From a virus, in the IMG/VR virus record IMGVR_UViG_3300027805_000022, positions 1 through 45,446 of that record: a stretch of DNA of 45,446 bases, one strand, 5' to 3'. The notes beneath the pieces were generated by a model. The model was not told where the DNA came from. It saw only the letters and a list, made by a program, of their open reading frames with translations, and ran no database searches. This document shows positions 4,313 to 42,899 of this stretch, piece after piece. The translations under genes and the position numbers were made by a program. Position 1 is the stretch's first letter; each line of letters starts with the position of its first letter.

Positions 4313-4575
4313 TGTTTGTATTTTTTTCTCTCTAGTCTAACTTCTTTTCTCTCCATGTCAAGCTTTTTGATTTGTTCTTCAATTTTTTTGTTTCTACGCT
4401 TTCCAAAATCAAAACTATAAGCTCCGAAAGGAATTGCTGTATTTTGTAACTTTGTAATCTCTCTATCCAACTTTTGCAATTTTTTAAAAATGGTCGAAGA
4501 AGCACGACTCGAACGTGCGCCACTCATGCGTCCATGGTTGTTCTTTCCTCCTAAACTATTCTTCGAAATTTTCAT
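4309..4575 (-). CDS. basic coiled-coil protein whose 5' codons contain a tRNA-like element
   Basis: 88 residues, very basic. The C-terminal half is a likely coiled coil of Lys/Glu/Arg repeats. The ATG at 4575 forms an ATGA overlap with the upstream gene, and the stop forms another with the downstream gene, so the frame from 4575 is well supported. Yet codons from about 4 to 28 coincide with the tRNA-like sequence at 4491-4565. Either this is dual-use sequence, or translation begins later (a TTG inside) and the tRNA was inserted here. Confidence 0.6.
   Translation of the reverse strand: MKISKNSLGGKNNHGRMSGARSSRASSTIFKKLQKLDREITKLQNTAIPFGAYSFDFGKRRNKKIEEQIKKLDMERKEVRLERKKYKQ
4491..4565 (-). 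tRNA. tRNA-like element, CCA encoded, aberrant anticodon arm
   Basis: The minus strand folds as a tRNA. The acceptor CGAAGAA pairs fully with TTCTTCG, the D stem is GTTT/GAAC with a GG-containing loop, and the T arm is GCACG-TTCGAGT-CGTGC with five pairs. It ends in A-CCA. The region between D and T arms is about 21 nt, with a weak CCAT/GTGG stem and an oversized loop, and I cannot assign an anticodon. It could be a decayed tRNA, a tRNA mimic, or a tRNA with an unusual anticodon arm. It lies in frame inside a coding sequence. Confidence 0.5.
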
Positions 4576-6842: not shown

Positions 6843-7030
6843 AATTTTGATTCCTTTTTTATTTCTCTCAAACCGTTATTATAAAGTTCCACCAATGCAT
6901 TATCTCCAGTCATAGCACCAATGTCTTGAATTGTATTTGTATTTGTTTTTGCTTCGTGCAATTTAACTCCGACTTCATTAGAAATTGTCAGAGTTATATT
7001 ATAGTTTTCAGGTATTGTTTCTATTTTCAT
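6839..7030 (-). CDS. hypothetical protein, intact copy of a duplicated gene
   Basis: 63 residues starting MKIETIPENYNITLTI. The first 36 codons are repeated 280 bp upstream (7202-7310) with three base differences. There the copy is cut short after 37 residues. This copy is full length and continues GAMTGDNALVELYNNGLREIK. Unknown function. ATGA overlap with the gene upstream. Confidence 0.8.
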   Translation of the reverse strand: MKIETIPENYNITLTISNEVGVKLHEAKTNTNTIQDIGAMTGDNALVELYNNGLREIKKESKL

Positions 7031-7200
7031 TTTACTAATTGAATAAGTGGTGGTTTCTCTATTTCTTTTATAGTCGATTCTATAAGTTTTCTAAGAATAT
7101 CTATTTTGGATTCTTGAATCATATCAAAAGGTAAGGTTAAGACTGGGCCTTTTTGTGTATCAGTGTCAATTATTTTGATTTGAATATCGTATTTTTTCAT
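7027..7200 (-). CDS. 57-residue hypothetical protein inside the duplication
   Basis: MKKYDIQIKIIDTDTQKG followed by a helical end (KIDILRKLIESTIKEIEKPP). It lies between the two repeat copies and joins both through ATGA overlaps: its start with the truncated copy, its stop with the intact copy. Conserved coupling on both sides makes it a credible gene. Confidence 0.75.
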   Translation of the reverse strand: MKKYDIQIKIIDTDTQKGPVLTLPFDMIQESKIDILRKLIESTIKEIEKPPLIQLVK

Positions 7201-7310
7201 TTGTCTTGAATTGTATTTGTATTTGTTTTTGCTTCGTGCAATTTAACTCCGACTTCATTAGAAATTGTCAGAGTTATATTATAGTTTTCGTTTATTGTTT
7301 CTATTTTCAT
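7197..7310 (-). pseudogene. truncated copy of the 6839-7030 gene
   Basis: 37 codons starting MKIETINENYNITLTI are identical, except at one residue, to the start of the intact gene. They then end at a TGA created by fusion to the ATG of the 57-residue gene. It could be translated as a short peptide, but most likely it is a duplication remnant that keeps translational coupling in the operon. Confidence 0.8.
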
Positions 7311-7429
7311 TGTTTATTAAAAAGGGTTCTCACTAAATCACAAAGATAGGCAATAGGAGCAGTTATCAAAATTAAAGTTCCCAACCAAATCCAAAAAGAG
7401 GAGAATATAAATTGTAGTACTTGTAGCAT
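7307..7429 (-). CDS. 40-residue single-span membrane peptide
   Basis: MLQVLQFIFSSFWIWLG then LILITAPIAYLC forms one long hydrophobic segment, followed by a short basic end (VRTLFNKQ). Upstream, after the previous stop, only 1 nt intervenes, and the stop overlaps the next ATG. Short membrane peptides in phage early operons often inhibit host functions. No direct evidence here. Confidence 0.65.
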   Translation of the reverse strand: MLQVLQFIFSSFWIWLGTLILITAPIAYLCDLVRTLFNKQ

Positions 7430-19523: not shown

Positions 19524-19935
19524 TGGTGGAGGTGACGACATACGATAGTCGTGTCCATTAAAAGTTTACTTTCAGATCTACACATGCTTTAATGTATTTG
19601 ATTTACAAGGTATCTTGGCACATTAACCAACCTTGATGTTTTAAAGTTACAACAAACTCCGTAATATTTTTTACATGATTTCTAACAGATCGTCAAAACC
19701 TCTGCAATTCAAAACGGATTTAGAGGATTACCGTTAGGCTCTTAGGCGGCGAGTGCGTAGTCTTCAACGCCAGCGAGGAACTCGTCAGCATTGTTGAAGA
19801 TGTATTCAGCTTCGGCTAAAAGATCAGAAGTATTGTCTTCTGCATTTAGTTTTTTGATAGATTATTAAAGAGGCCAACTATCATCCTCCACATGCACTGA
19901 GAAGTTAGAATCCAATGTCGAATCCTTTCACCCCC
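19524..19935 (-). ncRNA. ssrA: tmRNA, phage-encoded, tag ending VEDYALAA
   Basis: About 412 nt. The 5' end GGGGGTG pairs with the 3' CACCTCC; A-CCA is encoded at the end. G3-U70 and the A discriminator are the alanine identity elements. The conserved 5' block GGATTCGAC is at 19918-19926, followed by GTGCATG and GGTTGGCCTC-like parts seen in bacterial tmRNAs. The tag frame probably resumes at GCA (19841-19843), begins A-E-D-N-T-S-D, and ends L-A-G-V-E-D-Y-A-L-A-A at TAA (19742-19744): about 33 residues, long for a tag, with the usual protease-recognition end. The T arm (ACGAC/GTCGT) has an 8-nt loop without the usual TTC. Confidence 0.93.
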
Positions 19936-20776: not shown

Positions 20777-20941
20777 TTATAAAGTATCTAACTTTAGATC
20801 TCCAATTGCCCAATTATAAACCCAATCTTGGATATCGGAAAGAGTTGGATTTGTTTCATTAGTAACATCAAAAACAAATAATTCTTCTTTTAGAATTTTG
20901 GAATATGCTTTTTTGAGTAGGATCTGGTCTTTGTTTTTCAT
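20777..20941 (-). CDS. 54-residue tagged protein (KDQILL N-terminus)
   Basis: A short gene beginning MKNKDQILLKKAYSKILKEE. It carries the shared N-terminal peptide of the late tagged genes, but with K-K in place of E-N at positions 10-11; an L-K-E triplet at 17-19 supplies the missing (L/I)-x-E. The rest is a single domain-sized helix-strand segment (SDIQDWVYNWAIGDLKLD). Its ATG is 4 nt after the upstream stop. Confidence 0.78.
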   Translation of the reverse strand: MKNKDQILLKKAYSKILKEELFVFDVTNETNPTLSDIQDWVYNWAIGDLKLDTL

Positions 20942-20945
20942 ATTA

Positions 20946-21458
20946 TTAATAATTATCTACTGCATTTTTTTCTGCTTGTTTTTCAAATTTATTAAGGTTT
21001 TCGTCTATATGTTCTTGAAGATGTTTTTCAATTGCTAAATTCATTTTTTCTTCTGCATTTTTATCTTCTGATGTAAAAACATTCTCTTCTTCTTGATCTC
21101 TAAATTGCCAACTGACTAAAATTATACCACTAACATATGTTTCACGGTGATGACGTATACTTGGACCGTGATATTGACCCCATTCATCACTATCAGTTTC
21201 AACATCTGCACCAAAACTAACATCATCAAAACTAACACCCTCAGATTGAATTTCTTCCATACTCCATCCGTATGATTTTGAATACTTTTCAAGAACATCT
21301 TGTGGAAAAAATTCAGCTGGAACCGTGAAATAATAACTATTAAGTTTTACTCCACCATCAAGAAAATTATTAAAATCAAGTCTGTTTGATTTAATATTTA
21401 AATTTTCATGAATTGAATTATATAAATTTTCCAATAATATTTGATCTTTGTTTTTCAT
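20946..21458 (-). CDS. tagged protein of unknown function
   Basis: 170 residues. The tag MKNKDQILLENLYNSI occupies residues 1-16, with L-L-E ending at residue 10. The remainder is acidic with a beta-rich middle (YYFTVPAEFFPQDVLEKYS, then GIILVSWQFRDQ) and a helical end (AEEKMNLAIEKHLQEHIDEN). No fold recognised. It is the first gene after a late-type AAGTAAAT box and would be packaged with the other tagged proteins if the head-targeting idea is right. Confidence 0.9.
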   Translation of the reverse strand: MKNKDQILLENLYNSIHENLNIKSNRLDFNNFLDGGVKLNSYYFTVPAEFFPQDVLEKYSKSYGWSMEEIQSEGVSFDDVSFGADVETDSDEWGQYHGPSIRHHRETYVSGIILVSWQFRDQEEENVFTSEDKNAEEKMNLAIEKHLQEHIDENLNKFEKQAEKNAVDNY

Positions 21459-23818: not shown

Positions 23819-24334
23819 TTATTTATTTAATTTTACTGCACCCTTACTTCCAGAACGAACCAATCCTGTTCCTGCTGCTTGAATTGTTCCAGATTGTTGT
23901 AAATGTTTTTTAAAGGTATTAAACAAATCTTGTTTTAATGCATCGGTGTCCTGTATACCTAATCCTAAATTTTTAACGTCTCTTGCGACACCTGTTAACA
24001 TACTATTTAAATATTGTGTCAATCTTTGTCCGGTATATTGACTATCTACTTCGTTTCGTTTTTTTGAAAGTTCACCTTGTTTTATTTGTTGGTCTTTATA
24101 TGATTGTAATGAACGAGGATCTTGTCCCTTTGCTCCTGCAACAGCACCGATTCCCATTTGTTTGGCTTTAGAAAATCCTTTTTGTGCGCCAATTACAGCT
24201 TTTTTAGCAGCACCACCAATTCCTCTGACAACATCACCACCCATGGTTTTAAAAAAAGAACCTAAATCTTCATCTAATTGTTGTTCAATTACTTTGTTAT
24301 AGGCTTCGTTCAATAAAATATCATCTTTTTTCAT
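23819..24334 (-). CDS. likely tagged internal head protein, Gly/Ala/Lys-rich
   Basis: 171 residues. The start MKKDDILLNEAYNKVIEQ is a looser form of the shared tag, with L-N-E ending at residue 10. Residues about 32-75 are rich in Gly, Ala and Lys (GGAAKKAVIGAQKGFSKAKQ), typical of basic internal or DNA-associated virion proteins. The rest is helical and ends with a basic Gly/Ser tail. It has a late-type promoter (TATAAATA at 24341-24348). A head protein role is inferred. Confidence 0.85.
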   Translation of the reverse strand: MKKDDILLNEAYNKVIEQQLDEDLGSFFKTMGGDVVRGIGGAAKKAVIGAQKGFSKAKQMGIGAVAGAKGQDPRSLQSYKDQQIKQGELSKKRNEVDSQYTGQRLTQYLNSMLTGVARDVKNLGLGIQDTDALKQDLFNTFKKHLQQSGTIQAAGTGLVRSGSKGAVKLNK

Positions 24335-29742: not shown

Positions 29743-30429
29743 ATGAATAAATTAAATGAAAATATTTGGAAAAACAGTAAACGAATAGATTCGGATGTTA
29801 AAGAAAGACTATTAAATGTAGCTAAAATATTTTTAAAAAATATAGAAACTGCAATAGAAATTAAAAATATATTTTTCACTGGTTCTCTCGCAACTTATGT
29901 TTGGAATAATTTAAGTGACATAGATTTACATATAATAGTTGATGTATTAGATGAAAAATGTATGGATACGGTTTCGGATTATTTTGATACTAGAAGTAAA
30001 ATTTTTAATAAAGAACACGATATTTTTATTAGAGGTTATAAGGTTGAGGTGAATATTAAAACAGAAGAAACCGAACTAACCGGAAAAGCTATTTACGATT
30101 TAATAAAAGACGAATGGTATATAAAACCAATCAAACCTACCAGAACAATGGATGATCATGAAGTTTTAACATTGGTTTCCAGAATCCAATATGAAATAGA
30201 AGATGCTATAAATAACAAAAGAGATATAGATGTATTAAAGGATTTAAGAAAAAAAATTAAAAAAATTAGAGTCGATGGATTAAAAGAAGAAGGAGAATAT
30301 TCTGTTGGTAATCTTACATTTAAAAATTTAAGAAATAGTGGATATATTAAAAGATTAATGGATCACAATAAAGAAATACAAGATGATATGTTATCTTTGG
30401 AAAGTTTTAAAGATTATTTGTATAGATAA
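29743..30429 (+). CDS. nucleotidyltransferase-fold protein
   Basis: 228 residues. F-F-T-G-S-L-A-T-Y-V-W near residue 44, then S-D-I-D-L-H-I-I-V-D near 58, and V-E-V-N-I-K near 108 give the G-S...D-x-D...D/E pattern of the polymerase-beta nucleotidyltransferase fold. The C-terminus is helical. Relatives occur beside late genes in T4-like phages. The substrate could be tRNA, protein or small molecules. No tag. Preceded by an AAATAAATG late-like box. Confidence 0.85.
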   Translation: MNKLNENIWKNSKRIDSDVKERLLNVAKIFLKNIETAIEIKNIFFTGSLATYVWNNLSDIDLHIIVDVLDEKCMDTVSDYFDTRSKIFNKEHDIFIRGYKVEVNIKTEETELTGKAIYDLIKDEWYIKPIKPTRTMDDHEVLTLVSRIQYEIEDAINNKRDIDVLKDLRKKIKKIRVDGLKEEGEYSVGNLTFKNLRNSGYIKRLMDHNKEIQDDMLSLESFKDYLYR

Positions 30430-30915: not shown

Positions 30916-31572
30916 TTAATTAACCTTATAAAAATCATCCCAAACTGACTCACTAAGACCAAAATCAACCAATACTACTGTTGGAACACCTTCTCTAATA
31001 ACTTCGCCGTAGGAATTTACCCTCCCAAAGTCACCCGGATACTTCATTCCAAAATTCATAATCATATCCGTTAATGAATTTAAAAATTCATTGTCATTTA
31101 CTTTCTGACTAAATTCGTCGTGTAATTCTTTTAATTGTTGAGAATTTAAATATTTTCTTCTGGAACTATTATTCAATGTTTCCATTACACGAAGAATATC
31201 TTGAACTTCATTTAAACTTATTCCGGTTAATTGTTTAAATCTATTTGGTGTTAATTTTTTAGCCAATTCCATTTCAACCCAAAAGTGATCATCGTTTGTA
31301 TCAAATATCTTTGCAACTATATCAGACATTCTTTGCAATCCCCAATCCGATTCTATTGAATTTTGACCGATTCCCTTTTTATTCTTGGCTATTTTTAAAA
31401 CTTTTTCTTCATCAACCTTATATACAACTCTGGCACTACCGGAAGATATTTTCTGCAATCTTTCATTAGCATATTTCAATTTACCATTATATGATTTAAT
31501 GTTATTAAATTCTTCAAAAGAAAAACTTACAGGATAAGCCATTTCCTTTATATATTGTTTAAAAGATTTCAT
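30916..31572 (-). CDS. tagged protein-kinase-like protein
   Basis: 218 residues. The start MKSFKQYIKEMAYPVSF has I-K-E ending at residue 10, the position of the cut in the main tag. The body shows kinase-like parts: a Gly-rich loop S-S-G-S-A-R-V-V-Y-K-V near 43-53, V-L-K-I-A-K near 58 (Lys), P-G-D-F-G-R-V-N near 180, and V-V-L-V-D-F-G-L-S-E near 204 (the D-F-G-like motif). It is short, ending soon after the D-F-G, so it may be a small-molecule or protein kinase fold of unusual size. ATGA overlap upstream. Confidence 0.82.
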   Translation of the reverse strand: MKSFKQYIKEMAYPVSFSFEEFNNIKSYNGKLKYANERLQKISSGSARVVYKVDEEKVLKIAKNKKGIGQNSIESDWGLQRMSDIVAKIFDTNDDHFWVEMELAKKLTPNRFKQLTGISLNEVQDILRVMETLNNSSRRKYLNSQQLKELHDEFSQKVNDNEFLNSLTDMIMNFGMKYPGDFGRVNSYGEVIREGVPTVVLVDFGLSESVWDDFYKVN

Positions 31573-32915
31573 ATAGAAGTTTTTGGTTTGTTTCTTTCGT
31601 AAAAATAATAATATATTTGTATTATAGGAAACATTTCTCTTAATAATTCATCATGAACATTATCGTTTTCACTATCGGAAGAATAACTTAAAATTAATTT
31701 ATTTGCTGTCATATCTATCTCATTTAATTTATCGTTTAAAACCGAAGTATTTGAAACAGCATTGAAAAATTTTGATATATCGCTATTTTTATTATTCAAT
31801 TCCTTTCTTATTTGTTCTTTATTAATACTATTGAAATATAATTTATCTTCAAATATATTCCCTAATGCATCGACTGGTATTTTAATGTTTACTGTTGAAT
31901 TAAAAATTAATATATTGTTTTTAACCTGCGCACTATACGATAAACTTGTAAAATTATCTGATATTGTTGCTCTTCTTAGAAAAGTTTTAAATTTATCTGT
32001 TACTTCTCTTGCTTTATCTAAAAACTCCAATCTTCTATCCTTTAACAAATCTTCTTCGGTTCTATCTAAATTTGGATATTCGGAATAATCTCCTGTATAT
32101 AAACCTTTTAAATAAACAAATCCTTTTTTATTTTTTACTTTTGAATTGAAGTTTTCGGTAGCCCAATCAGTAGCAAAGGTTTTAAATTTTTCTATTTTTG
32201 CGCCATATTTATTTGGTCCAACTGCATATGCCAACTCTTGCTCTTTATTAACCATTGGTCTTAATAAAATTCTAGATAGTGGTTTTTTCAATGCTATCTT
32301 ACCGTTTTCTCTTAATTCAGATTTAGGAACCAAATATAATACAATAGAACCTTTAGAAACATCCGCACTTAATGCACACTTCATTTCACCACCTTCTAAA
32401 TTCATACAAGATGTCCAACTTCTATCAGTAGATGCTCCATATATATCATATGGATGTCGAGAAACTACAACAACCATTTCGTTTGATGTTATGTTTTTTA
32501 TTGGATCAGATTTATACATTTCGACTTCTTCGGTGGTTTTTATTTTACCACCTTTTTTTGTGATCAGTTCTGTCTCTTGTCCAAATTTATTTAATATTTT
32601 TCCTATGTTATATACATTTTTATCATTTTGTTTATAACATATTCCTTTTATATAATCGGATATATTTTTAATATAATAGTTATACTGTTCTAATAATTCA
32701 TTTATTTTATAAAAAGTACTTGTTGGATCAGTCTTAATATTTGAATAATCTTTTTCTACATCTAAATCAAAATCATATATAAGTCTATCCTTATTACCAA
32801 AAACATCATTTACCTGTTTGTTTATATATGCCCCGCTTTTTTTTCGGGTCATATTTTTCTCTTTTGCAACAGAAAGAGAAATAGCTTCTAGAAAATAATC
32901 TTTAAAAGAGATCAT
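31569..32915 (-). CDS. tagged phage protein with TDRSWTSCMNL motif, unknown function
   Basis: About 448 residues from ATG at 32915 (MISFKDYFLEAISLSV), which overlaps the upstream stop as ATGA; the E at residue 10 fits the tag position, with F-L-E in place of L-L-E. Near residue 170, V-V-V-V-S-R-H-P-Y-D-I-Y-G-A-S-T-D-R-S-W then T-S-C-M-N-L is a conserved block that I have seen in T4-like phage proteins without known activity. It reads as an enzyme active site with His, Asp, Arg, Trp and Cys. The rest is helical. Confidence 0.82.
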   Translation of the reverse strand: MISFKDYFLEAISLSVAKEKNMTRKKSGAYINKQVNDVFGNKDRLIYDFDLDVEKDYSNIKTDPTSTFYKINELLEQYNYYIKNISDYIKGICYKQNDKNVYNIGKILNKFGQETELITKKGGKIKTTEEVEMYKSDPIKNITSNEMVVVVSRHPYDIYGASTDRSWTSCMNLEGGEMKCALSADVSKGSIVLYLVPKSELRENGKIALKKPLSRILLRPMVNKEQELAYAVGPNKYGAKIEKFKTFATDWATENFNSKVKNKKGFVYLKGLYTGDYSEYPNLDRTEEDLLKDRRLEFLDKAREVTDKFKTFLRRATISDNFTSLSYSAQVKNNILIFNSTVNIKIPVDALGNIFEDKLYFNSINKEQIRKELNNKNSDISKFFNAVSNTSVLNDKLNEIDMTANKLILSYSSDSENDNVHDELLREMFPIIQIYYYFYERNKPKTSI

Positions 32916-34069
32916 TTTTTCTTTTTCTTTTTTGGTACACAATTAGGAACCATTCTTTTTCCTTTTTTCTTCATCCCTTCTTGTTTATAGTTTTTCCAAC
33001 ATGCTTCGGTAAAAAATTTTTCAAATGATTCTCCGATTCTTTCCCTCGATTTAACAATAATATCGGAATGGTCTTTACTAACGTCTCTTGCATCAACCTT
33101 ACCCCCTAGCATATCAATATACTTATTTATAAGTTCTGTTGATTTTTTATCTTTTTGATAAGGCATGACTTGAGAAATAGATCCATCTGGTAGAGTAATA
33201 CCTATCGGCGTTCTTTCAATTTTACCACCAGCATAGTTTAATTTTTGTGCAACTATATCACACCAAACGTCCCATAGGTTTTTTGAAATATCCATAGAAG
33301 CAGCTTTTTCGAGATAATTTATAAATTGAATATATGCATTTGCTATTTTATAACCAGACTTATCCAACTCTTTTGTTTCTGGATTCTTCTTGGCAGTTTT
33401 CATCTTCAGTTCTATTTCTTTATCTTCATTTTCTTTCTTTGTGAAAAGTTCTTCCGGTGCAACTGCTTTATATACTGCTGAATTTATAGAGTCTATACAT
33501 CCTAGTTTTCCCATCATGAGTTGAACGCAGAAAGCAGCTTTTGTTGGTCCAAGTCCTGATATATTGTTTATTAAAACATACCATATTTCTATAGCTTTAT
33601 TTAAATAGTCTTCCTCTGATAATTTTTTATCTGATTTAGGATCGTAAATTGCAATAATTTTATCATAAATCATTTTCTTTTTTTGCCATAACGATTTAAT
33701 ATATATATTACTAGGTCCGGTAAATGGTGCGGGAACGTTTTCATCTGCAAAATAAGCACCTTTATCATATCTCCAATCTGTAGTTAATGGGCTTTTTTGA
33801 GCTTTCTTATCGGTAGTCATAACCCACATTAAAAAAGAATCAAATCTAAATTTAACATCCATCCATTTTTTCGCTATGGTGTAGAAAACAAAACTTATCA
33901 ATATAGCCATATTTACTTCATTATCAAAAGCAAATGGTTTAATCGATGGATTATGTAAACAGAATCCACTATCACTTGATTGTAAATTTTTTCTTGAATC
34001 TACAACTGCTGCATATGGTTTTCCCGTTGCATCTAAGATTTCTTCGATTAGTAGTTTTATTTTTTTCAT
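32912..34069 (-). CDS. HhH DNA-glycosylase-like protein with phage C-terminal tail
   Basis: 385 residues. Residues 170-192 read I-S-G-L-G-P-T-K-A-A-F-C-V-Q-L-M-M, then G-C-I-D-S: a helix-hairpin-helix followed by Cys-Ile-Asp, as in HhH-GPD base-excision glycosylases (Asp catalytic). The N-terminus MKKIKLLIEEILDATG has L-I-E at 7-9, tag-like. The C-terminus (about 345-385) has the F-T-E-A-C-W...G-M-K-K-K-G-K-R-M-V-P-N-C-V-P sequence found at the ends of varied T4-like and marine phage proteins. Late-type AATAAATA upstream. Confidence 0.82.
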   Translation of the reverse strand: MKKIKLLIEEILDATGKPYAAVVDSRKNLQSSDSGFCLHNPSIKPFAFDNEVNMAILISFVFYTIAKKWMDVKFRFDSFLMWVMTTDKKAQKSPLTTDWRYDKGAYFADENVPAPFTGPSNIYIKSLWQKKKMIYDKIIAIYDPKSDKKLSEEDYLNKAIEIWYVLINNISGLGPTKAAFCVQLMMGKLGCIDSINSAVYKAVAPEELFTKKENEDKEIELKMKTAKKNPETKELDKSGYKIANAYIQFINYLEKAASMDISKNLWDVWCDIVAQKLNYAGGKIERTPIGITLPDGSISQVMPYQKDKKSTELINKYIDMLGGKVDARDVSKDHSDIIVKSRERIGESFEKFFTEACWKNYKQEGMKKKGKRMVPNCVPKKKKKK

Positions 34070-34095: not shown

Positions 34096-34491
34096 TTATT
34101 CAGATTTCCAAATACTACGATAATCTTCGCTGTGCTCATCATCAAAATATATATCACTCATTCTGTTTTCTATAGCCAAATTCTTCAATTCTCTTAATTG
34201 TTTTTGATTCGGTTTCATTTTATTATTATGACAATATAATTCGCTTCCAATATATGTCAACCTCATCCAACCTTTTATAAAAAGTAAATCGTATACCTGA
34301 TTTGCAAACATCATATCTTTTGTCGGCATATTGTATCTATCCTGTAAAATTTTTTTACCGGATGAGAAATGACCCTCTCCTTTATTTGAAATTATTTCCC
34401 CTGATGGATTCATCCATGCATACAAAGAACCAGATTCATTTAGAATATCTAAATACAAATTCTCCAGTAGTATTTGGTCTTTGCTTCTCAT
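34096..34491 (-). CDS. tagged protein (LYAWMNPSGE...GWMRL family)
   Basis: 131 residues. Tag MRSKDQILLENLYLDILNES at 1-20 with L-L-E ending at 10. The body begins L-Y-A-W-M-N-P-S-G-E near 23 and has I-K-G-W-M-R-L near 72; this pattern appears in many T4-like phage proteins of unknown function, often alone and untagged. Here it is a fused second part behind the tag. Confidence 0.88.
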   Translation of the reverse strand: MRSKDQILLENLYLDILNESGSLYAWMNPSGEIISNKGEGHFSSGKKILQDRYNMPTKDMMFANQVYDLLFIKGWMRLTYIGSELYCHNNKMKPNQKQLRELKNLAIENRMSDIYFDDEHSEDYRSIWKSE

Positions 34492-34507: not shown

Positions 34508-35074
34508 TTATGCTTTAAAATTATAACCTTTTCTTTTAAGAATTGTAACAAGCTTACTACCTTCCCACCAACCATCAGGTTTAGCAGAACCAGATTTAAA
34601 ATAGTCTTCATCTTCCAATCCCTTATAATCTTTATCATGATACATTGATGATGGATCGTATGGTGAATATTTCCTCCAATCATATTCTGTATTTGTATCG
34701 TAAAAAACAAATATCACACCATCATTTCTTATTTCATTCCAAGTAACATCTTTTTGGTGTTTATTATTTTTTGATGCTAGACACCACAACATTGCATTTA
34801 CGGCTTTATCAAATGTTTTTTTATCAGCGGCAAAAACAGGAATCTCTCTTTCATCCTTGTATTCGGATTCATCGTCGAAATACCCTTCCTCATCATGAAA
34901 GGTATTTACAAGAGAATCGTCATCTTCCAAACCACCACCAAAAATATCAGAATCTTTTAATGAATATTTAAATTTACTTTTACATGTACCGTGATAAAGA
35001 GTTCTTCCAGTATTTTCTTTTAAAAGAATTCTTTCATAAATACCTTCCAGTAATATTTGGTCTTTGTTTCTCAT
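34508..35074 (-). CDS. tagged ADP-ribosyltransferase-like protein
   Basis: About 188 residues from ATG at 35074 (MRNKDQILLEGIYERILLKE), set by ATGA overlap with the upstream gene. After the tag, T-G-R-T-L-Y-H-G-T near residue 22 is the L-Y-H-G-T start of PARP/Tpt1-like ADP-ribosyltransferases. E-I-P-V-F-A-A-D-K-K-T-F-D-K-A-V near 78 fits the second strand and A-rich helix. The rest is acidic and ends with a basic strand. NAD use is inferred. T4 packages Alt, an ADP-ribosyltransferase, in its head, so this is a close functional parallel. Confidence 0.78.
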   Translation of the reverse strand: MRNKDQILLEGIYERILLKENTGRTLYHGTCKSKFKYSLKDSDIFGGGLEDDDSLVNTFHDEEGYFDDESEYKDEREIPVFAADKKTFDKAVNAMLWCLASKNNKHQKDVTWNEIRNDGVIFVFYDTNTEYDWRKYSPYDPSSMYHDKDYKGLEDEDYFKSGSAKPDGWWEGSKLVTILKRKGYNFKA

Positions 35075-35736
35075 TTTAATCCTTTTATCCACATATAATC
35101 TTCATTGCATGTTGGGTGTTGTTTTAGTATTGCTTCTTCAGAACTAAAAGAAGATATGTTTCCAGACTTTTGAGTGAGAGTTTTTATTGATTTAAAATCA
35201 TCCCTATTCATAACTTCTTTCATAGCATTTATTCTTGTTTTTGTAAAGTCTGGAGTTCCTTTATTATTACTTAATCTTTCATCTCCACACCACCAAGAAG
35301 GCAATCCTTTTTTATAAACATATTCTGGATGTTTGTGTGGGTTGTATGTTACAGATTCCCATGTTCCATTTGATAATTTATTTCTTATTTCATTAAAAGG
35401 AAAATTCACATCAATTAATTGACCATACAATTTTATATATGGTTGCTTGATACCTTTAACTTCACTTCTTATTGTTCTATCTATAAGAGAATGATTTATA
35501 ATACTTTTTACATTTTTAATATGTAAAGTCGAAACATCACCAACATAACCAGCACCATCAACACTTATAGACCATTTCATATAATCGGGATGGTTTTTAC
35601 CAACCTTTATAACAGGATGTATTTCAACCATTTTTCCTATAAATTCTTTACCATCTTCCAAATTTTTTCTTTGAAATTTTTCAAACAATATGAGTTCGTA
35701 TAAATTTTCTAAAATAATTTGGTCCTTATTTTTCAT
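35071..35736 (-). CDS. tagged protein of unknown function
   Basis: 221 residues. The tag MKNKDQIILENLYELILFEK has I-L-E ending at residue 10. The body is strand-rich with V-D-G-A-G-Y-V-G-D-V-S near 66 and W-E-S-V-T-Y-N-P-H-K-H-P near 127, then L-P-S-W-W-C-G-D-E-R. The His/Trp/Cys cluster may be an active site but has no family I know. ATGA overlap on both sides. Confidence 0.85.
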   Translation of the reverse strand: MKNKDQIILENLYELILFEKFQRKNLEDGKEFIGKMVEIHPVIKVGKNHPDYMKWSISVDGAGYVGDVSTLHIKNVKSIINHSLIDRTIRSEVKGIKQPYIKLYGQLIDVNFPFNEIRNKLSNGTWESVTYNPHKHPEYVYKKGLPSWWCGDERLSNNKGTPDFTKTRINAMKEVMNRDDFKSIKTLTQKSGNISSFSSEEAILKQHPTCNEDYMWIKGLK

Positions 35737-36269
35737 GGGGTAGGTGTTGGATATCCAGTATAATTTACATTTTTATCTATATCACTTTCTGCTTTTAAAC
35801 CATGTTCTCCAAATTTGTTCATTTTCAAATTAAAAACTTTTTTTCTTGCATTTATTGCAGATGGAGTAAGAGTATCACTATATATTTTTGATATTCCTAT
35901 TTTCTGACCATATTTCGCAATAAGTCTATACATTACCTGACCATACCCTTTATTTCTGTGTTCAGGTGAAATTGTTATGTTTTTTATAATAAATCTATCA
36001 TTATCTTTTTTAAATATAGTTTCTCCAATTAATTTTCTGGTTTTGGGATATGCTATATATAATGCATAATAGCTTTCGTCATTCCCTTCATAATCTTCAG
36101 ATTCGACATATTCTAGATTATAAATAATATCGGGTAATTTTTTATCTTCAATTTCTTTTTTTGTAGGAGATGGATGCTCTTCGAATTCATTAGAACTTGG
36201 AAAAACATTTTCTTCTAAAAGAATATTTTCGTATATACTTTCCAGTAATATTTGGTCTTTGTTTTTCAT
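35733..36269 (-). CDS. tagged GNAT acetyltransferase (1)
   Basis: About 178 residues from ATG at 36269 (MKNKDQILLESIYENILLEE), 10 nt after the upstream stop; a longer frame to 36308 includes the upstream gene's end and is unlikely. The GNAT fold is clear: I-T-I-S-P-E-H-R-N-K-G-Y-G near 100 (acetyl-CoA loop, R-x-x-G-x-G), then L-I-A-K-Y-G-Q-K. It would acetylate an amine on a protein, RNA or small molecule. Second tag-type site L-L-E near 18 could be a further cut. Confidence 0.9.
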   Translation of the reverse strand: MKNKDQILLESIYENILLEENVFPSSNEFEEHPSPTKKEIEDKKLPDIIYNLEYVESEDYEGNDESYYALYIAYPKTRKLIGETIFKKDNDRFIIKNITISPEHRNKGYGQVMYRLIAKYGQKIGISKIYSDTLTPSAINARKKVFNLKMNKFGEHGLKAESDIDKNVNYTGYPTPTP

Positions 36270-36279
36270 TACATTGTAA

Positions 36280-36672
36280 TTATCTAGATGACCATCCATC
36301 GATATCATCGGTCAATCTTGGTATATATCCACCAATACTTTGTGCAAACTGTTCTCCCTCATAACTTCTACGCGATGAATGTTCTGGTTCTGGTTGATTA
36401 TTTTCTTTAGCCCATTCCACAGCAGTTTCCCATATATAAGTCCCAACACCCTGTCTTCTGTAAGGATCTCCTACATATATTTTTTCGACTTCTCCATCGT
36501 CTTTACTCCATTCAATATAACCAACTGCTCCATTTTTATTAAAAAAATCCAAACGATTATTAACCTCATCTTCGGTATGTTTATAGTTCAAATTATCCCA
36601 ATCCAAATTATTTTCTTCTAAAAAAATTCTTTCATACAAATTCTCCAGTAATATTTGGTCTTTGTTTTTCAT
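36280..36672 (-). CDS. tagged GNAT acetyltransferase (2)
   Basis: 130 residues. Tag MKNKDQILLENLYERIFLEE. G-Y-I-E-W-S-K-D-D-G near 51, then V-G-D-P-Y-R-R-Q-G-V-G-T-Y near 66-78, is the GNAT motif A (R-x-x-G-x-G). It is a short, single-domain enzyme next to another GNAT gene but clearly different in sequence after the tag. It overlaps the next gene by ATGA. Confidence 0.9.
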   Translation of the reverse strand: MKNKDQILLENLYERIFLEENNLDWDNLNYKHTEDEVNNRLDFFNKNGAVGYIEWSKDDGEVEKIYVGDPYRRQGVGTYIWETAVEWAKENNQPEPEHSSRRSYEGEQFAQSIGGYIPRLTDDIDGWSSR

Positions 36673-38204
36673 ATTATATTAAAGTATTCTTTGAAACTAA
36701 AATTAACAAAAGATTCATTAAAAACGGAATCAATATATTTTTTTATTTCTTCATCGTTTGGTTCTTGATTTGAATTTAATAATTCCAAAACATGATCTTG
36801 TGCTTTTTTTAACAATATTCCGAGTTTTGGTTTTTGATATAATTCAGGATACCATTGTATAAGTTTACCACCATCAATATATTGCTTAATTCTTTTTCTC
36901 AGATCTTCACTATCACCACCCAAGTTGGAAACCTTTTCTTCGGCTCTTTTTATTTTTTCTTCGAATTGTTTTTTATTAAAATGTGAAAGTCCTCTTGATG
37001 CTTCGTCACAATAAGCAACAGATTTTACGATATTCCAAGATGGATCAAGTATAAGTCTAGACAATGTTTTTATATTAAGATTATCAAGATTATGAACAAG
37101 CATATGTTTTGCAACAGCTTGTAAAATATTTTTTTTATCTTCGGCTGATAAATTATTAAATACCAATCTTTTAAAAATATTTTCTACTATAGAAACACCC
37201 GCTTCTTCGTGTCCATGATATGTTGATTGTCCTTCTTTCTCACCCCTTGTTGTTGCTTTTCCGAAATCATGAAATAATATCGCAAGATTTATAACAGGAT
37301 CTGTAAATGGAGAAACAGACAAGCATTCATATATATGACCAAGAACTCTGGATTCTCCTTCGGGATGATGTTTAGGATTATGCATAAATCCTTCCATAGA
37401 AGTAAACTCCGGTAGAATATCATGTAATATTTTATTGTCTTGTAACATTTTTAAAAACTGCATCAATGTTTTACCACTCTTAGCGGATTTATAAAATTCT
37501 TTTGCAATACTTTCAGATGATATAAGTTCTGGATTAGAAAGAATACCCTTCAATTCAACAGCAGCATTTCTTGTTTGATCATCTAAATTAAACCCCATCT
37601 TTGCAGCAAATCTAAAAACTCTTAAAATTCTTGTAGCATCTTCCATGAATCTTTTCTTTGGATCACCAACAGCACGAACAATTTTGTTTTTTAAATCATC
37701 TAAGCCATTTTGATGGTCTATTATAGTTCCATTCTCATCTATACCAAATGAATTAATTGTTAAATCTCTTCTTTCTGTATCTTTTTGAAAAGAATCTGTT
37801 TCTGTTGATACGTTGTTTTGTCTTCCAATATTACCAGAATCGGTTCTAAACTTAGCCAAATCATAATGATAATCTCTCCATTTAATATCGTAAACAGGTT
37901 GTGAATCGTTTTTTGATATATTTCTTACTTCAAATTTATCTCCCAATTTTTCAAATGGTATATTTGTTGCAAGATCAACATCATCAACTTCATTACCCAT
38001 CAACAAATCCCTTGGAACACCGCCAACTATATATATTTCTCCTTGTGGGAAAATAGATTTAATATTCTTCATCAAATCAACAGCAACTCTTAATTCTTCG
38101 GAATTTTGAAGAGCATCATTCCATTTACCGGAAAAATCCTCATCTTGTTCTTTTATTATTTTTAAATAAAGATTTTCCAATAATATTTGATCTTTGCTTC
38201 TCAT
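36669..38204 (-). CDS. tagged tRNA nucleotidyltransferase/poly(A) polymerase with HD domain
   Basis: 511 residues. After the tag (MRSKDQILLENLYLKIIKEQ), G-E-I-Y-I-V-G-G-V-P-R-D-L-L near 55-69, then V-D-D-V-D-L-A-T at 73-80 (metal-binding D-x-D), R-R-D-L-T-I-N-S-F near 150 and A-T-R-I-L-R-V-F-R-F-A near 197 give the whole class II CCA-adding/poly(A) polymerase head. An HD domain follows: H-H-P-E-G-E-S near 283 and L-F-H-D-F-G-K near 320, with a later K-H-M-L-V-H. Because it is full length and tagged, the phage may inject a tRNA- or RNA-tailing enzyme. Confidence 0.92.
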   Translation of the reverse strand: MRSKDQILLENLYLKIIKEQDEDFSGKWNDALQNSEELRVAVDLMKNIKSIFPQGEIYIVGGVPRDLLMGNEVDDVDLATNIPFEKLGDKFEVRNISKNDSQPVYDIKWRDYHYDLAKFRTDSGNIGRQNNVSTETDSFQKDTERRDLTINSFGIDENGTIIDHQNGLDDLKNKIVRAVGDPKKRFMEDATRILRVFRFAAKMGFNLDDQTRNAAVELKGILSNPELISSESIAKEFYKSAKSGKTLMQFLKMLQDNKILHDILPEFTSMEGFMHNPKHHPEGESRVLGHIYECLSVSPFTDPVINLAILFHDFGKATTRGEKEGQSTYHGHEEAGVSIVENIFKRLVFNNLSAEDKKNILQAVAKHMLVHNLDNLNIKTLSRLILDPSWNIVKSVAYCDEASRGLSHFNKKQFEEKIKRAEEKVSNLGGDSEDLRKRIKQYIDGGKLIQWYPELYQKPKLGILLKKAQDHVLELLNSNQEPNDEEIKKYIDSVFNESFVNFSFKEYFNII

Positions 38205-38215
38205 TATATTATTTA

Positions 38216-39217
38216 TTATGTGCTTTCACCTTCTCCACTACCCTCTCCACCAAATCCATATCCAAAACCGACACCCCAGTATCCACCTATTCTATTACCA
38301 ATAAAAGTATCAATTGGTTTTTTTATACCACCAACTCTATTCTTTCTTTTCTTTTTTCTTTTTTTACTTTTAGATTTTTTAGACTCTGTAAAATATTTTT
38401 TAAATGTTATATAAGAATCTCCTAATTGTCCTTTATAAAAAGAAGGAGTTTGATCCACGTCCATCTGACGAACCTGTTGGGTTGCCGCTGATACTGGTTG
38501 TTCTATATCACTTCTTTCCAAACCTTCAACATTTCCGCTTTGCATATCTTCTAATTTTATTTCATATCTTTTTCCGGTATATGTGGAAATATTATATATA
38601 GATTGAGATGCACGTAAATCCTCTTCTTCCCCATAAACACCTTCTTGTTCCAATGCACGATTTATTCCACTAGCAACAATTTTTAATTGTCCAGATGTTA
38701 ATTCATTTACTTCTATATGGTTTTGGTGAACTCTTGACCATCCCCATTCCTTTATTGCAAATTCTCTACCATCTCCTCCTCTACCTCTAGCAAGATGAAC
38801 CATCTCATCAATCGGACCATTCATGGTAGTTTGTGTTTTAAGATAATTTATAAGAGCATCATAAGGATCATTTTCAATCTCTTCTCTTTTTTCATCATCG
38901 TCTCCAATACCAAGTTTTTCTATTATAATTCCAATAATTTCATCTATATGATTATCCAAATCTGCTGGTTGATCATCAGAATATATATCAAAATATCCTA
39001 AAACTTCTCCTGCACAACGATCTTGTACATACATCTCATGGTTCATATCTCCAATATCACCATCCGCATACATTGGATCTCCACTTTCATCAAACCAATA
39101 TTCTCCCTTTATATATAAAGGTTCCATTTCGTTTTCTTCTGTTTCATCATCTATATCATCGGAATACAATCCTTCTAGATATAAATTCTCCAGTAATATT
39201 TGATCTTTGCTTCTCAT
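38216..39217 (-). CDS. tagged protein with acidic linker and Gly-rich tail
   Basis: 333 residues. Tag MRSKDQILLENLYLEGL. Residues 18-36 are acidic. Near 150, E-W-G-W-S-R-V-H-Q-N-H-I-E-V-N-E-L and S-G-Q-L-K-I-V-A-S-G-I resemble parts of marine phage proteins with unknown role. Near 275 there is F-K-K-Y-F-T-E-S, then a very basic run of Lys and Arg, and the last 30 residues are Gly/Tyr-rich. The basic stretch could bind DNA in the head. Confidence 0.85.
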   Translation of the reverse strand: MRSKDQILLENLYLEGLYSDDIDDETEENEMEPLYIKGEYWFDESGDPMYADGDIGDMNHEMYVQDRCAGEVLGYFDIYSDDQPADLDNHIDEIIGIIIEKLGIGDDDEKREEIENDPYDALINYLKTQTTMNGPIDEMVHLARGRGGDGREFAIKEWGWSRVHQNHIEVNELTSGQLKIVASGINRALEQEGVYGEEEDLRASQSIYNISTYTGKRYEIKLEDMQSGNVEGLERSDIEQPVSAATQQVRQMDVDQTPSFYKGQLGDSYITFKKYFTESKKSKSKKRKKKRKNRVGGIKKPIDTFIGNRIGGYWGVGFGYGFGGEGSGEGEST

Positions 39218-39751: not shown

Positions 39752-40495
39752 TTATTCCAGTTCATTTTGTAACCAAGTTTTTGTTGGTGTTTTTTCCTGA
39801 GATCCTTTTTCTCTTTCAAAATAAATGTGTGGTCTTCCATCTAAATCAAATTTTTTTATAGAATTTAATAAATGTTTTACAATATTTTCTGCTTGTTTTG
39901 GGTTTTTTGCTTGATAGGAATCTATTAAATCATATTTATTTGGAAAATATCCACCTTCTTGATGCCCCATAAATAATTTTGTATTATCATATAATGAAAC
40001 AAATAACGGATAATTTTCTATACTTTCTACATCAGATGGATCGTTGTAAGTATTACGAATATTATTAATATCTTTCCATAAATTATCATATTGGTCTTGG
40101 TCCATTGATCTATATATGTGTTGCATAGTAAAATTATCAAAACCGTTATCAAGGATACCCTGTTCGAACTTATTGACTTTTAAAAGTTCCGCGAGTTTTG
40201 TATTATTAGGAAGGTATTTCTTTTTTAAAAGATCCAAACTTATTTTAGCTATTTTTCTATCGTTTTCTTCTGTATCAACATCTGCAATATAATTGTGGAC
40301 GATATCATCATATTTATCATATAAAAAAGAATTTGGATAACCTTGACCGTGTGGAAAATTTGTTTCCCCTAATTCAAGATCTCCCATTTCGTTTTCTTGA
40401 TTTTCTTCGTTTTCTTGATTTTCTTCGTTTTCTTTATTTTCTAAAATTTTTGATGTATACAAATTCTCCAATAATATCTGATCTTTGCTTCTCAT
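39752..40495 (-). CDS. tagged protein with Asn/Glu repeat linker
   Basis: 247 residues. Tag MRSKDQILLENLYTSKILEN, then a simple-sequence linker of N-E-E-N-Q-E repeats (residues about 20-38) encoded by a short tandem repeat near 40395-40440. The rest is a helical, acidic domain with H-I-Y-R-S-M-D-Q-D-Q near 128 and G-G-Y-F-P-N-K near 183. Not recognised. It carries a TATAAATA late promoter 9 nt upstream of its ATG. Confidence 0.87.
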   Translation of the reverse strand: MRSKDQILLENLYTSKILENKENEENQENEENQENEMGDLELGETNFPHGQGYPNSFLYDKYDDIVHNYIADVDTEENDRKIAKISLDLLKKKYLPNNTKLAELLKVNKFEQGILDNGFDNFTMQHIYRSMDQDQYDNLWKDINNIRNTYNDPSDVESIENYPLFVSLYDNTKLFMGHQEGGYFPNKYDLIDSYQAKNPKQAENIVKHLLNSIKKFDLDGRPHIYFEREKGSQEKTPTKTWLQNELE

Positions 40496-41016: not shown

Positions 41017-41388
41017 ATGAATAACAAAGATACCATGATGCTCGCAGAAGCATATTCCAATATTTTAAAAGAAGAAATTGCAGATTTTAACAATAACGGT
41101 TCACCATTGGACAACATGAGTCCAGAAAGATTTAGAACAGAAAGAATAGATTCCGATGAAGAAGACAGGGCAGAAGAAAATGATAAGTTTTCACAATTGG
41201 AAATAGGATTAGGAAGACCAAATCCTTCGGTAGAACAGGGAGATCTATTGCAGGGTTTATCAGAGAATGATGCCAGAGAACTATTAAACCATCTAAATCA
41301 AAAGGGAGAAGAAAACGAAGAGAATTGGGTATTGAAGGACAATCTTATTCTACAACTTTTCGATCTTCTAAGAAACCCAAATATTTAA
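41017..41388 (+). CDS. tagged acidic protein, unknown function
   Basis: 123 residues. MNNKDTMMLAEAYSNILKEE is the tag variant with L-A-E ending at residue 11. The body is acidic and Asn-rich, with D-N-M-S-P-E-R-F near 31 and a helical C-terminus. Unknown function. Confidence 0.82.
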   Translation: MNNKDTMMLAEAYSNILKEEIADFNNNGSPLDNMSPERFRTERIDSDEEDRAEENDKFSQLEIGLGRPNPSVEQGDLLQGLSENDARELLNHLNQKGEENEENWVLKDNLILQLFDLLRNPNI

Positions 41389-41796: not shown

Positions 41797-42138
41797 ATGA
41801 ACTACCTCAAAATAGAAAAAAATAAAAATAACGTAATCAACGGAAAACTCACAAACGACAAGGGTTCTTTGAATATTCCCATTACCTTAATTGGAAGTGG
41901 AATCTTGAATATTTCAAAAGACAAAGAATTGAATTTGGATCCAGAAAAAATAAATGTATTCAAAAATAATAAATTTGAATATAGTATGAAAAACATCAAA
42001 TTGAGCAATTTCTTCGGAAAAAATGTTATTGAAGGTGTTAATGATAGCGATTCTTTTTCTGCGGTAATCGTTGATACGAGTGAAATTAAAAATATGTGGA
42101 CTAATGATTATAATGGAATTTGGAATATTGATGTTTAA
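41797..42138 (+). CDS. hypothetical beta-rich small protein
   Basis: About 113 residues from ATG at 41797 (MNYLKIEKNKNNVING). An ATG at 41788 overlaps the -10 box, so it is unlikely to be used. It is strand-rich (SLNIPITLIGSGILNIS, then FSAVIVDTSEIKNMW). No family recognised. It ends by overlapping the convergent metalloprotease gene by 4 nt, with the terminator lying inside that gene's 3' part. Confidence 0.78.
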   Translation: MNYLKIEKNKNNVINGKLTNDKGSLNIPITLIGSGILNISKDKELNLDPEKINVFKNNKFEYSMKNIKLSNFFGKNVIEGVNDSDSFSAVIVDTSEIKNMWTNDYNGIWNIDV

Positions 42139-42899
42139 ATTTCAATGTATTTATAAGTTTTAACACTTTCAGAAAAACTCTTAATGTAATCTTGGTAAAG
42201 ATCCATTAAGAGTTTTTCGTTTTTATCAAAACCAAGTCTTTCTAATAAATTCATAACAAAATTTTCTATATTCTTGGGATCGTTATTGTTCCGATAATTA
42301 TATTCCAATGCATATGCTTCCAATTCTGCGGGGTGCATGAAATATTCTTTAAATTGTTTCTTCCAGTATTCTATAGTTTTTTCTCCCCCTAATGTTAATG
42401 TTGGAGGGATCATTTCTTTATCTTCGTATATTTGTCTGACATGTACCATTTCATGAAATAGAACATATTTTATTTCATTTCTAAATTCGTCTATGTTTTT
42501 TACAATGTCATTTAGTGTTATTATAATCCTTACGAGTGATTGTTGATTATTATAAAAAGCACCTAGGTTGAAATTTTGATTTAAATTTGGATCAATCTGA
42601 ATATAAACTTCTATTTTTTGAAGATCAAATGGAATATCTTTAAGGTTATTTAAAAAATTACTATTTATAAAATTGTTTAAATCATTTTGTATCTTTGATT
42701 TATATTGTCTATATTTAACAGAATCTTCAAAATTGTTTATGAGCAAGTCTATCTCTTTTGATTTACTAAAAAGTCCCAATTTATTCATACCCTTTTCTAA
42801 AAGAATATAGAAATCATCTAGAAAACTTTTTTTTACAGATTCAGATAAAACATATCTTTGATAAAGATTCTCCAATAATATTTGATCTTTGCTTCGCAT
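42135..42899 (-). CDS. tagged HExxH metalloprotease-like protein
   Basis: 254 residues. The tag MRSKDQILLENLYQRYVLSE has L-L-E at 8-10. V-L-F-H-E-M-V-H-V-R-Q at 146-156 contains the zinc-binding H-E-x-x-H, and H-P-A-E-L-E-A-Y-A-L-E-Y near 189-200 could offer the third ligand Glu. The fold looks like a small zincin. Packaged with the DNA, it would be a protease delivered into the host. The codons for the last 28 residues contain a terminator hairpin. Confidence 0.85.
   Translation of the reverse strand: MRSKDQILLENLYQRYVLSESVKKSFLDDFYILLEKGMNKLGLFSKSKEIDLLINNFEDSVKYRQYKSKIQNDLNNFINSNFLNNLKDIPFDLQKIEVYIQIDPNLNQNFNLGAFYNNQQSLVRIIITLNDIVKNIDEFRNEIKYVLFHEMVHVRQIYEDKEMIPPTLTLGGEKTIEYWKKQFKEYFMHPAELEAYALEYNYRNNNDPKNIENFVMNLLERLGFDKNEKLLMDLYQDYIKSFSESVKTYKYIEI
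42173..42217. terminator. bidirectional terminator inside the metalloprotease 3' end
   Basis: AAAAACTCTTAATG pairs with CATTAAGAGTTTTT over 14 bp, loop 17 nt. T runs on both strands can stop transcription in either direction, so it can end the plus-strand gene at 41797. It is coding sequence on the minus strand. Confidence 0.8.

What the first reader, a model, noticed from the sequence alone, without database searches (positions are those of the whole stretch)
36669..38204. A full CCA-adding/poly(A) polymerase with HD domain that carries the tag
The catalytic GG...DxD head, RRD motif and HD domain are all present, and the N-terminus carries the tag. Phages rarely encode this whole enzyme, and the tRNA genes seen here already encode CCA, so maintenance of the phage's own tRNAs is not an obvious need. 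A packaged enzyme could instead modify host RNA right after infection (tailing, tRNA repair or capping of cut tRNAs).
Basis: partly seen in the sequence, partly recalled or inferred. Interest (0 to 1): 0.75.

Follow-up and report, generated by a model that had tools for sequence, protein, structure and literature searches.

The report
Virus-packaged tRNA-end repair enzyme
A bacterial virus related to phage T4 encodes a tRNA 3'-end (CCA-adding) enzyme whose ends carry the kind of signal T4-like viruses use to pack proteins into the particle, so it is probably injected with the viral DNA, and several other virus lineages have tagged the same enzyme with different signals.

Summary
36669-38204(-) is an intact 511-aa class II tRNA nucleotidyltransferase with a complete HD domain, closer to CCA-adding enzymes than to poly(A) polymerase. 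Its N-terminus carries a tag, MRSKDQILLENLYLKIIKE, shared by at least 12 other ORFs in the window and by about 75 unrelated protein bodies in related viral contigs. One premise is wrong: phages often encode this enzyme (438 INPHARED records). The tag is best read as a T4-type capsid-targeting propeptide. It has the T4 geometry: ten residues ending in L-x-E, with a second L/I-x-E at 17-19. T4 IPII/IPIII have that site at 8-10 and IPI at 17-19. In at least three protein families it is swapped for T4-style tags (for example MKSFKQYIKE). Other tagged proteins include ADP-ribosyltransferases, acetyltransferases and a protease-like protein. About 200-kb relatives encode the gp21 prohead protease. 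Relatives of the enzyme in other phages carry unrelated tags (MRFKRYLAE|A), each shared with 10-23 ORFs of the same genome. The most likely role is a packaged, co-injected enzyme that restores tRNA 3' ends early in infection. Packaging, cleavage and activity were not tested. It is a new variant of a known kind, the T4 internal proteins.

The parts
36669..38204 (-). Tagged CCA-type tRNA nucleotidyltransferase with HD domain, 511 aa
38145..38204 (-). N-terminal tag MRSKDQILLE|NLYLKIIKE|Q (residues 1-20), predicted capsid-targeting propeptide; possible gp21-type cleavage after E10 (LLE) or E19 (IKE)
   Evidence: low model confidence over this stretch
37674..38036 (-). Nucleotidyltransferase head (GG..DxD, RRD), residues 57-177
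   Evidence: PF01743 6e-24
37089..37289 (-). HD domain match (residues 306-372); the conserved HPE lies further upstream, at residue 280
   Evidence: PF01966 1.3e-6; catalytic residues conserved with E. coli Cca
36672..36716 (-). C-terminal extension ESFVNFSFKEYFNII (residues 497-511), T4-style tag-like
   Evidence: pLDDT <50 at 501-511; compare T4 IPI MKTFKEF
38216..39217 (-). Tagged ORF 333 aa, first gene of the same run; NATAAATA late-promoter-like site 21 nt upstream
36280..36672 (-). Tagged GNAT acetyltransferase 130 aa
   Evidence: PF00583 1.3e-8
35733..36269 (-). Tagged GNAT acetyltransferase 178 aa (tag start at 36269)
   Evidence: PF00583 2e-7
35071..35736 (-). Tagged ORF 221 aa
34508..35074 (-). 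Tagged ORF 188 aa (LYHGT.. N-terminal region; ADP-ribosyltransferase-like by eye only)
34096..34491 (-). Tagged ORF 131 aa; NATAAATA at -21
39752..40495 (-). Tagged ORF 247 aa; TATAAATA at -17
42135..42899 (-). Tagged zinc-protease-like ORF 254 aa (HEMVH; PF14891 E 0.0013, below cut-off)
20949..21458 (-). Tagged ORF 170 aa
40536..41000 (+). Tag-variant ORF (MTNKDIMLLENAY)
41017..41388 (+). Tag-variant ORF (MNNKDTMMLAEAY)
23819..24334 (-). Tag-variant ORF (MKKDDILLNEAY)
30916..31572 (-). Kinase-like phrog_4301 protein with T4-style tag MKSFKQYIKE; its homologue in L105 carries MKNKDQILLENLYTE on the same body

Best explanation
The gene encodes a CCA-type tRNA nucleotidyltransferase with an intact HD phosphohydrolase domain, fused to removable capsid-targeting ends. 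Late in infection it is made with the other tagged proteins. The N-terminal tag (and perhaps the C-terminal FSFKEYF) docks it on the prohead core. The T4 gp21-type prohead protease trims the tag after L/I-x-E, and the enzyme is sealed in the head and injected with the DNA. In the new host it is active before any phage gene is expressed, and the most likely job is restoring 3'-CCA ends of damaged or attacked tRNAs, with the HD domain clearing 2',3'-cyclic or terminal phosphates. Shown by sequence: the enzyme family, the tag, its modularity, its T4 CTS geometry, tag swapping and recurrence in other phages. Inferred: packaging, cleavage, injection, and CCA repair as the role.
For: Enzyme: closest NCBIfam matches are CCA tRNA nucleotidyltransferases (144 and 135 bits) against 110 for PcnB. 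The top solved-structure match by fold is the Bacillus stearothermophilus CCA-adding enzyme (E 5e-17). It groups with CCA enzymes, away from E. coli PcnB, though on a long branch. HD catalytic residues are shared with E. coli Cca and lost in PcnB. Tag: 124 distinct tags on about 75 unrelated bodies; K4, D5, L9, E10 and Y13 over 92% conserved. A second L/I-x-E at 16-20 in 46 of 73 bodies against 2-8 of 73 in background windows. T4 IPII/IPIII have the site at 8-10 and IPI at 17-19; published T4 propeptides are 10-19 residues and are cut after L/I-X-E (PMC9026906). Swaps: MKSFKQYIKE|MAYPVSF against MKNKDQILLENLYTE|MAYPVSF (88% identical bodies) and two more families at 75-80%. Cargo: PARP/ART-PolyVal/DUF3990, GNAT and M91-like domains, as T4 packages the ADP-ribosyltransferase Alt. 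Machinery: gp21 family in all four tag-bearing records of about 200 kb and in 7 of 11 records with related enzymes. Recurrence: of 42 near viral relatives, 22 have [LI]xE in the first 12 residues against 7 of 70 bacterial enzymes. In G024, 23 ORFs including the enzyme share M[RK][FL]xx[YF][LI]xE. The other phage enzymes and E. coli Cca compared lack such a tag. Model: body confident; both ends (1-20, 501-511) poorly predicted.
Against: No virion proteomics and no cultured member: the exact tag has no match in INPHARED. The window is a 45-kb fragment and no gp21 or gp23 was seen in it. NCBIfam trusted cut-offs for CCA enzymes are not reached. Close relatives of the enzyme in L202-L207 (67-68% identical) do not carry this tag, and their N-terminus MKKFHKLYRQLMRE is not repeated in the part of G026 that was read. 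The late-promoter-like motif is only modestly enriched upstream of tagged genes (27% against 14%). Loci were found with a tag pattern, so conservation of residues 1-10 is partly by selection; Y13 and the second site are not.
Confidence: 0.62

Rival explanations
1. The tag is a shared docking or localisation signal for something other than the head core (host membrane, a phage compartment, a common phage partner protein), so the enzyme acts inside the cell that made it.
For: Packaging has not been shown; the tag residues KDQILLE are not homologous to T4 CTSs; an amphipathic helix could dock many things.
Against: Exchange with T4-style tags on 75-88% identical bodies, two L/I-x-E sites at the T4 positions, gp21 in relatives, and Alt-like and other effector-like cargo.
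Confidence: 0.17
2. An ordinary tRNA maintenance enzyme: it matures or repairs phage tRNAs and the phage tmRNA during infection, and the tag is incidental to its function.
For: 438 phage records carry such enzymes, and those compared have no tag; the window has tRNAs, a tmRNA and two RNA ligases; jumbo-phage surveys place CCA enzymes with RNA repair (PMC7824862).
Against: All phage tRNAs here and the tmRNA encode CCA; the RNA ligases of the window are untagged while this enzyme is tagged in at least two lineages with different tags.
Confidence: 0.13
3. It is a poly(A) polymerase-like tailing enzyme that adenylates host or phage RNA to alter stability, rather than a CCA enzyme.
For: The PolyA_pol head domain is shared by both; specificity cannot be read from sequence with certainty; long branch in the tree.
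Against: Better match to CCA models than to PcnB, HD residues intact where PcnB has lost them, and no GRRF signature; the best fold matches are CCA-adding enzymes.
Confidence: 0.08

Closest known systems
T4 internal proteins IPI, IPII, IPIII and their capsid-targeting sequence (CTS)
   Same: Short N-terminal propeptide shared by unrelated proteins, ending in L/I-x-E at residue 10 or 19; T4-like phage with gp21-type protease; non-essential, anti-defence or host-modifying cargo
   Different: Tag letters KDQILLENLY are new; more tagged genes per genome; cargo is a full tRNA enzyme; packaging not yet shown
T4 Alt, packaged ADP-ribosyltransferase
   Same: A packaged enzyme acting at the start of infection, trimmed at both ends (PMC9026906); tagged ADP-ribosyltransferases occur in the same tag family
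   Different: Different enzyme class: nucleotidyltransferase on tRNA
Phage CCA tRNA nucleotidyltransferases (PHROG 2244), e.g. in Vequintavirinae and Sinorhizobium phage phiN3
   Same: Same catalytic head and HD domain, about 30% identical
   Different: Those compared start directly at the catalytic head, without an N-terminal tag or the FSFKEYF tail
E. coli Cca (CCA addition plus HD phosphohydrolase)
   Same: Domain order and catalytic residues of head and HD
   Different: 30% identity; 55-residue N-terminal and short C-terminal extensions added

Membership tests
Class II CCA-adding tRNA nucleotidyltransferase | Head motifs GGxxRD...DxD, RRDxTxN, EDxxRxxR | tested here: met
   VGGVPRD..DDVD, RRDLTIN, EDATRILR
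Class II CCA-adding tRNA nucleotidyltransferase | Fold of CCA-adding enzymes | tested here: met
   AF2 pLDDT 86.5; Foldseek top hit 1miv E 5e-17
Class II CCA-adding tRNA nucleotidyltransferase | NCBIfam equivalog trusted cut-off | tested here: not met
   144 bits against cut-off 290: divergent member, exact specificity not assured
Class II CCA-adding tRNA nucleotidyltransferase | Adds C, C, A to tRNA 3' ends | not testable with these tools
   needs a biochemical assay
Bacterial poly(A) polymerase I (PcnB) | GRRF-type signature and degenerate HD | tested here: not met
   alignment with E. coli PcnB and Cca
T4-type internal (CTS-tagged) head protein | N-terminal propeptide of 10-19 residues ending L/I-x-E, shared by otherwise unrelated proteins | tested here: met
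T4-type internal (CTS-tagged) head protein | Tag exchangeable with a T4-style CTS on the same body | tested here: met
   three families by comparison
T4-type internal (CTS-tagged) head protein | Sequence homology of the N-terminal tag to T4 CTS (MK[TS][FY]..[FY]) | tested here: not met
   KDQILLENLY is a different sequence; only the C-terminal SFKEYF resembles IPI KTFKEF
T4-type internal (CTS-tagged) head protein | gp21-type prohead protease in the same phage | tested here: inconclusive
   not seen in this 45-kb fragment; present in all four tag-bearing records of about 200 kb
T4-type internal (CTS-tagged) head protein | Late expression | tested here: inconclusive
   NATAAATA upstream of 35/128 tagged against 93/656 other genes
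T4-type internal (CTS-tagged) head protein | Present in virions, trimmed by protease, injected | not testable with these tools
   needs proteomics

The most novel reading that the evidence does not exclude
T4-like environmental phages carry an injectome defined by lineage-specific, interchangeable head-packaging tags, and a ready-made tRNA 3'-end repair enzyme has been recruited into it more than once, so tRNA damage is being countered from the first moments of infection, before phage genes are expressed.
Probability: 0.5. Interest if true: 0.82.

Novelty: new variant of a known kind. Interest (0 to 1): 0.66.

Why it matters
Only a handful of packaged T4 effector proteins have known functions. 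A readable tag lets whole sets of injected proteins be listed from sequence in uncultured phages. A packaged CCA enzyme would mean that tRNA 3' ends are attacked very early in infection, which points to host defences acting on tRNA ends and makes that question directly testable. The tag may also serve as a portable signal for loading proteins into phage heads.

Tried and rejected
Exact-tag tblastn against cultured phages found nothing. Window 34096-34491 has no relative in INPHARED. Tag as a DNA-level repeat or translation element was rejected: codons vary freely at conserved residues (L9 codon differs in 77% of pairs, D5 in 43%). Poly(A) polymerase reading disfavoured. Literature searches found no packaged tRNA nucleotidyltransferase; in the one proteomics paper examined for this (Pectobacterium phage CB7, PMC7344957) the passages read mention the enzyme as a gene, not among the named virion proteins, but its full protein table was not read. 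XacN1 has a CCA enzyme, but the passages read do not say whether it is in virions. Promoter evidence is weak. G026, which carries a close relative of the window's enzyme, does not repeat that relative's N-terminal sequence. One literature query failed on syntax.

Full report
Observation. ORF 36669-38204(-) encodes 511 aa with a PolyA_pol head (E 6e-24) and an HD domain. It matches PHROG 2244, tRNA nucleotidyltransferase, at 1e-59. All head motifs are intact, and so are the HD residues that E. coli Cca has and E. coli PcnB has lost. NCBIfam CCA models score higher than PcnB but stay below trusted cut-offs. The AlphaFold2 model (pLDDT 86.5) matches the Bacillus CCA-adding enzyme best, and the tree puts it among CCA enzymes, on a long branch. 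It is therefore a divergent CCA-type enzyme. Such enzymes are not rare in phages: 438 INPHARED records match.

The extra ends. Enzymes from Sinorhizobium, Cronobacter, Klebsiella and Vibrio phages, and E. coli Cca, start within a few residues of the catalytic head, while this one has 55 residues in front. The first 20 are the tag MRSKDQILLENLYLKIIKEQ. The last 15, ESFVNFSFKEYFNII, are also extra. Both ends are the low-confidence parts of the model (1-20 and 501-511). The [ST]FKxYF motif occurs at protein termini in 25 of 28 cases across the loci read then, where about 31% is expected, and T4 IPI begins MKTFKEF.

The tag family. The degenerate tag pattern occurs 8 times in the window (0 in shuffles), and 13 ORFs carry it or a close variant. 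In viral contigs it gave 59 loci. From these and from tiles of ten related contigs I collected 124 distinct tags on about 75 unrelated bodies. The consensus is M[KR][NS]KDQILLE[NSEQ][LAI]Yxx[IV][LI]xE. Residues 1-10 were part of the search pattern, but Y13 (94%) and the second L/I-x-E at 16-20 (46 of 73 bodies against 2-8 in background windows) were not. Codons vary at conserved residues, so the selection is on protein.

Why this looks like head packaging. T4 internal proteins carry 10-19-residue propeptides that target them to the prohead core; gp21 removes them after L/I-X-E (PMC9026906). Read from the T4 record, the L/I-x-E starts at residue 8 in IPII and IPIII and at residue 17 in IPI; the new tag has its two sites starting at 8 and at 16-18. 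The two tag kinds replace each other on the same body. A phrog_4301 kinase-like protein has MKSFKQYIKE|MAYPVSF in this window and MKNKDQILLENLYTE|MAYPVSF in L105 (88% identical), with MATFSEYLFE in L067 (54%). An ADP-ribosyltransferase-like protein and a third family do the same with MTFKEYFFKE and MTFKEYFLE (75% and 80%). More distant homologues in an Alishewanella phage and in XacN1 begin MKIYNLYSTLLE|A and MKQVRLSQFLSE|A. Tagged bodies include PARP/ART-PolyVal/DUF3990, GNAT and M91-like domains; T4 packages the ADP-ribosyltransferase Alt. All four tag-bearing records of about 200 kb encode the gp21 family, and G002 also has gp20 and gp23. T-even ip genes were themselves first listed by their leader sequence (PMC12373910).

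Independent recurrence. A profile scan of viral contigs returned 80 relatives. Of 42 distinct near ones (L202-L249), 22 have [LI]xE within the first 12 residues, typically M[KR]Fxx[YF][LI]xE|A, against 1 of 29 more distant viral and 7 of 70 bacterial enzymes, the latter mostly P-E. In G024 (161 kb, gp21 present) 23 ORFs share this other tag, in two main clusters, and the CCA enzyme (MRFKRYLAE|AREMF) lies in one of them. In G021 ten do, the CCA enzyme among them. The [LI]xE peak at residue 7 in G024 is 29 against a background of 2.2 per residue. So at least two lineages put their own, unrelated tag on this enzyme.

Mechanism proposed. The enzyme is made late, packed by its tag, trimmed, injected, and then acts on tRNA 3' ends before phage genes are expressed. 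The window also encodes two RNA ligases, but these are untagged, which singles out the CCA enzyme as the part that is needed immediately. Jumbo-phage surveys interpret CCA enzymes as RNA repair against host RNases (PMC7824862). The phage tRNAs and tmRNA encode their CCA, so primary maturation of phage tRNAs is not the need. Steps shown: enzyme family, tag modularity, geometry and swapping, recurrence. Steps inferred: packaging, trimming, injection, substrate.

Limits. There is no cultured member, no proteomics, and the window is a fragment. Relatives of the enzyme at 67-68% identity (L202-L207) lack this tag; their N-terminus (MKKFHKLYRQLMRE) resembles the Alishewanella type by eye but is not repeated in the part of G026 read. 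The late-promoter signal is modest (27% against 14%). Gene calls in these loci were simple longest-ORF calls.

Noticed in passing
window 19524-19935 (-): A phage-encoded tmRNA (Rfam RF00023, 97.7 bits) missed by ARAGORN, with an unusually long tag frame AEDNTSDLLAEAEYIFNNADEFLAGVEDYALAA (33 aa, up to 35 in relatives) conserved in several related contigs; DLLAEAEY vaguely resembles the tag variant MMLAEAY.
   Followed up: partly
window 32912-34069 (-), C-terminal end: C-terminal module SFEKFFTEACWKNYKQEGMKKKGKRMVPNCVP matched by six different PHROGs, apparently another mobile terminal module next to a T4-style tag; a second such module (RDRCLKKADSVYGKKTSAYKSGAVVKCRQGKIWK) occurs on tagged proteins in L099, L082 and L078.
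   Followed up: no
window 42135-42899 (-): Tagged protein with HEMVH zinc-protease motif, weakly similar to the M91 effector peptidase family.
   Followed up: partly
L118 436-2136 (Alishewanella phage Slicko01): Three adjacent hypothetical proteins share N-termini MK[IF]xxLYxxLLxE, one with an ADP-ribosyltransferase-like start: another lineage-specific tag in a cultured phage, suitable for virion proteomics.
   Followed up: partly
G024 (L283, L288) and G021 (L291): 23 and 10 ORFs with the tag M[RK][FL]xx[YF][LI]xE in clusters, likely further sets of packaged proteins.
   Followed up: partly
L102 4597 (-), L041 2490 (-): Proteins with both tag kinds in tandem: MRSKDQILLDNISFKQYFLE and MKNKDQISTKNISFKDFFLE.
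   Followed up: no
window 20779-20943 (-): A 54-aa ORF that is little more than the tag (MKNKDQILLKKAYSKILKEE...), followed by about 450 bases without an obvious gene.
   Followed up: no
window 29743-30429 (+): Second nucleotidyltransferase (Pol-beta type, weak) ending SFKDYLYR, a possible C-terminal tag.
   Followed up: no
window 4491-4565 (-): tRNA-like gene with an unassigned four-base anticodon call (gacg) and encoded CCA.
   Followed up: no
window 6922-7031 and 7202-7311: 110-nt direct repeat, 97% identical, 280 nt apart.
   Followed up: no
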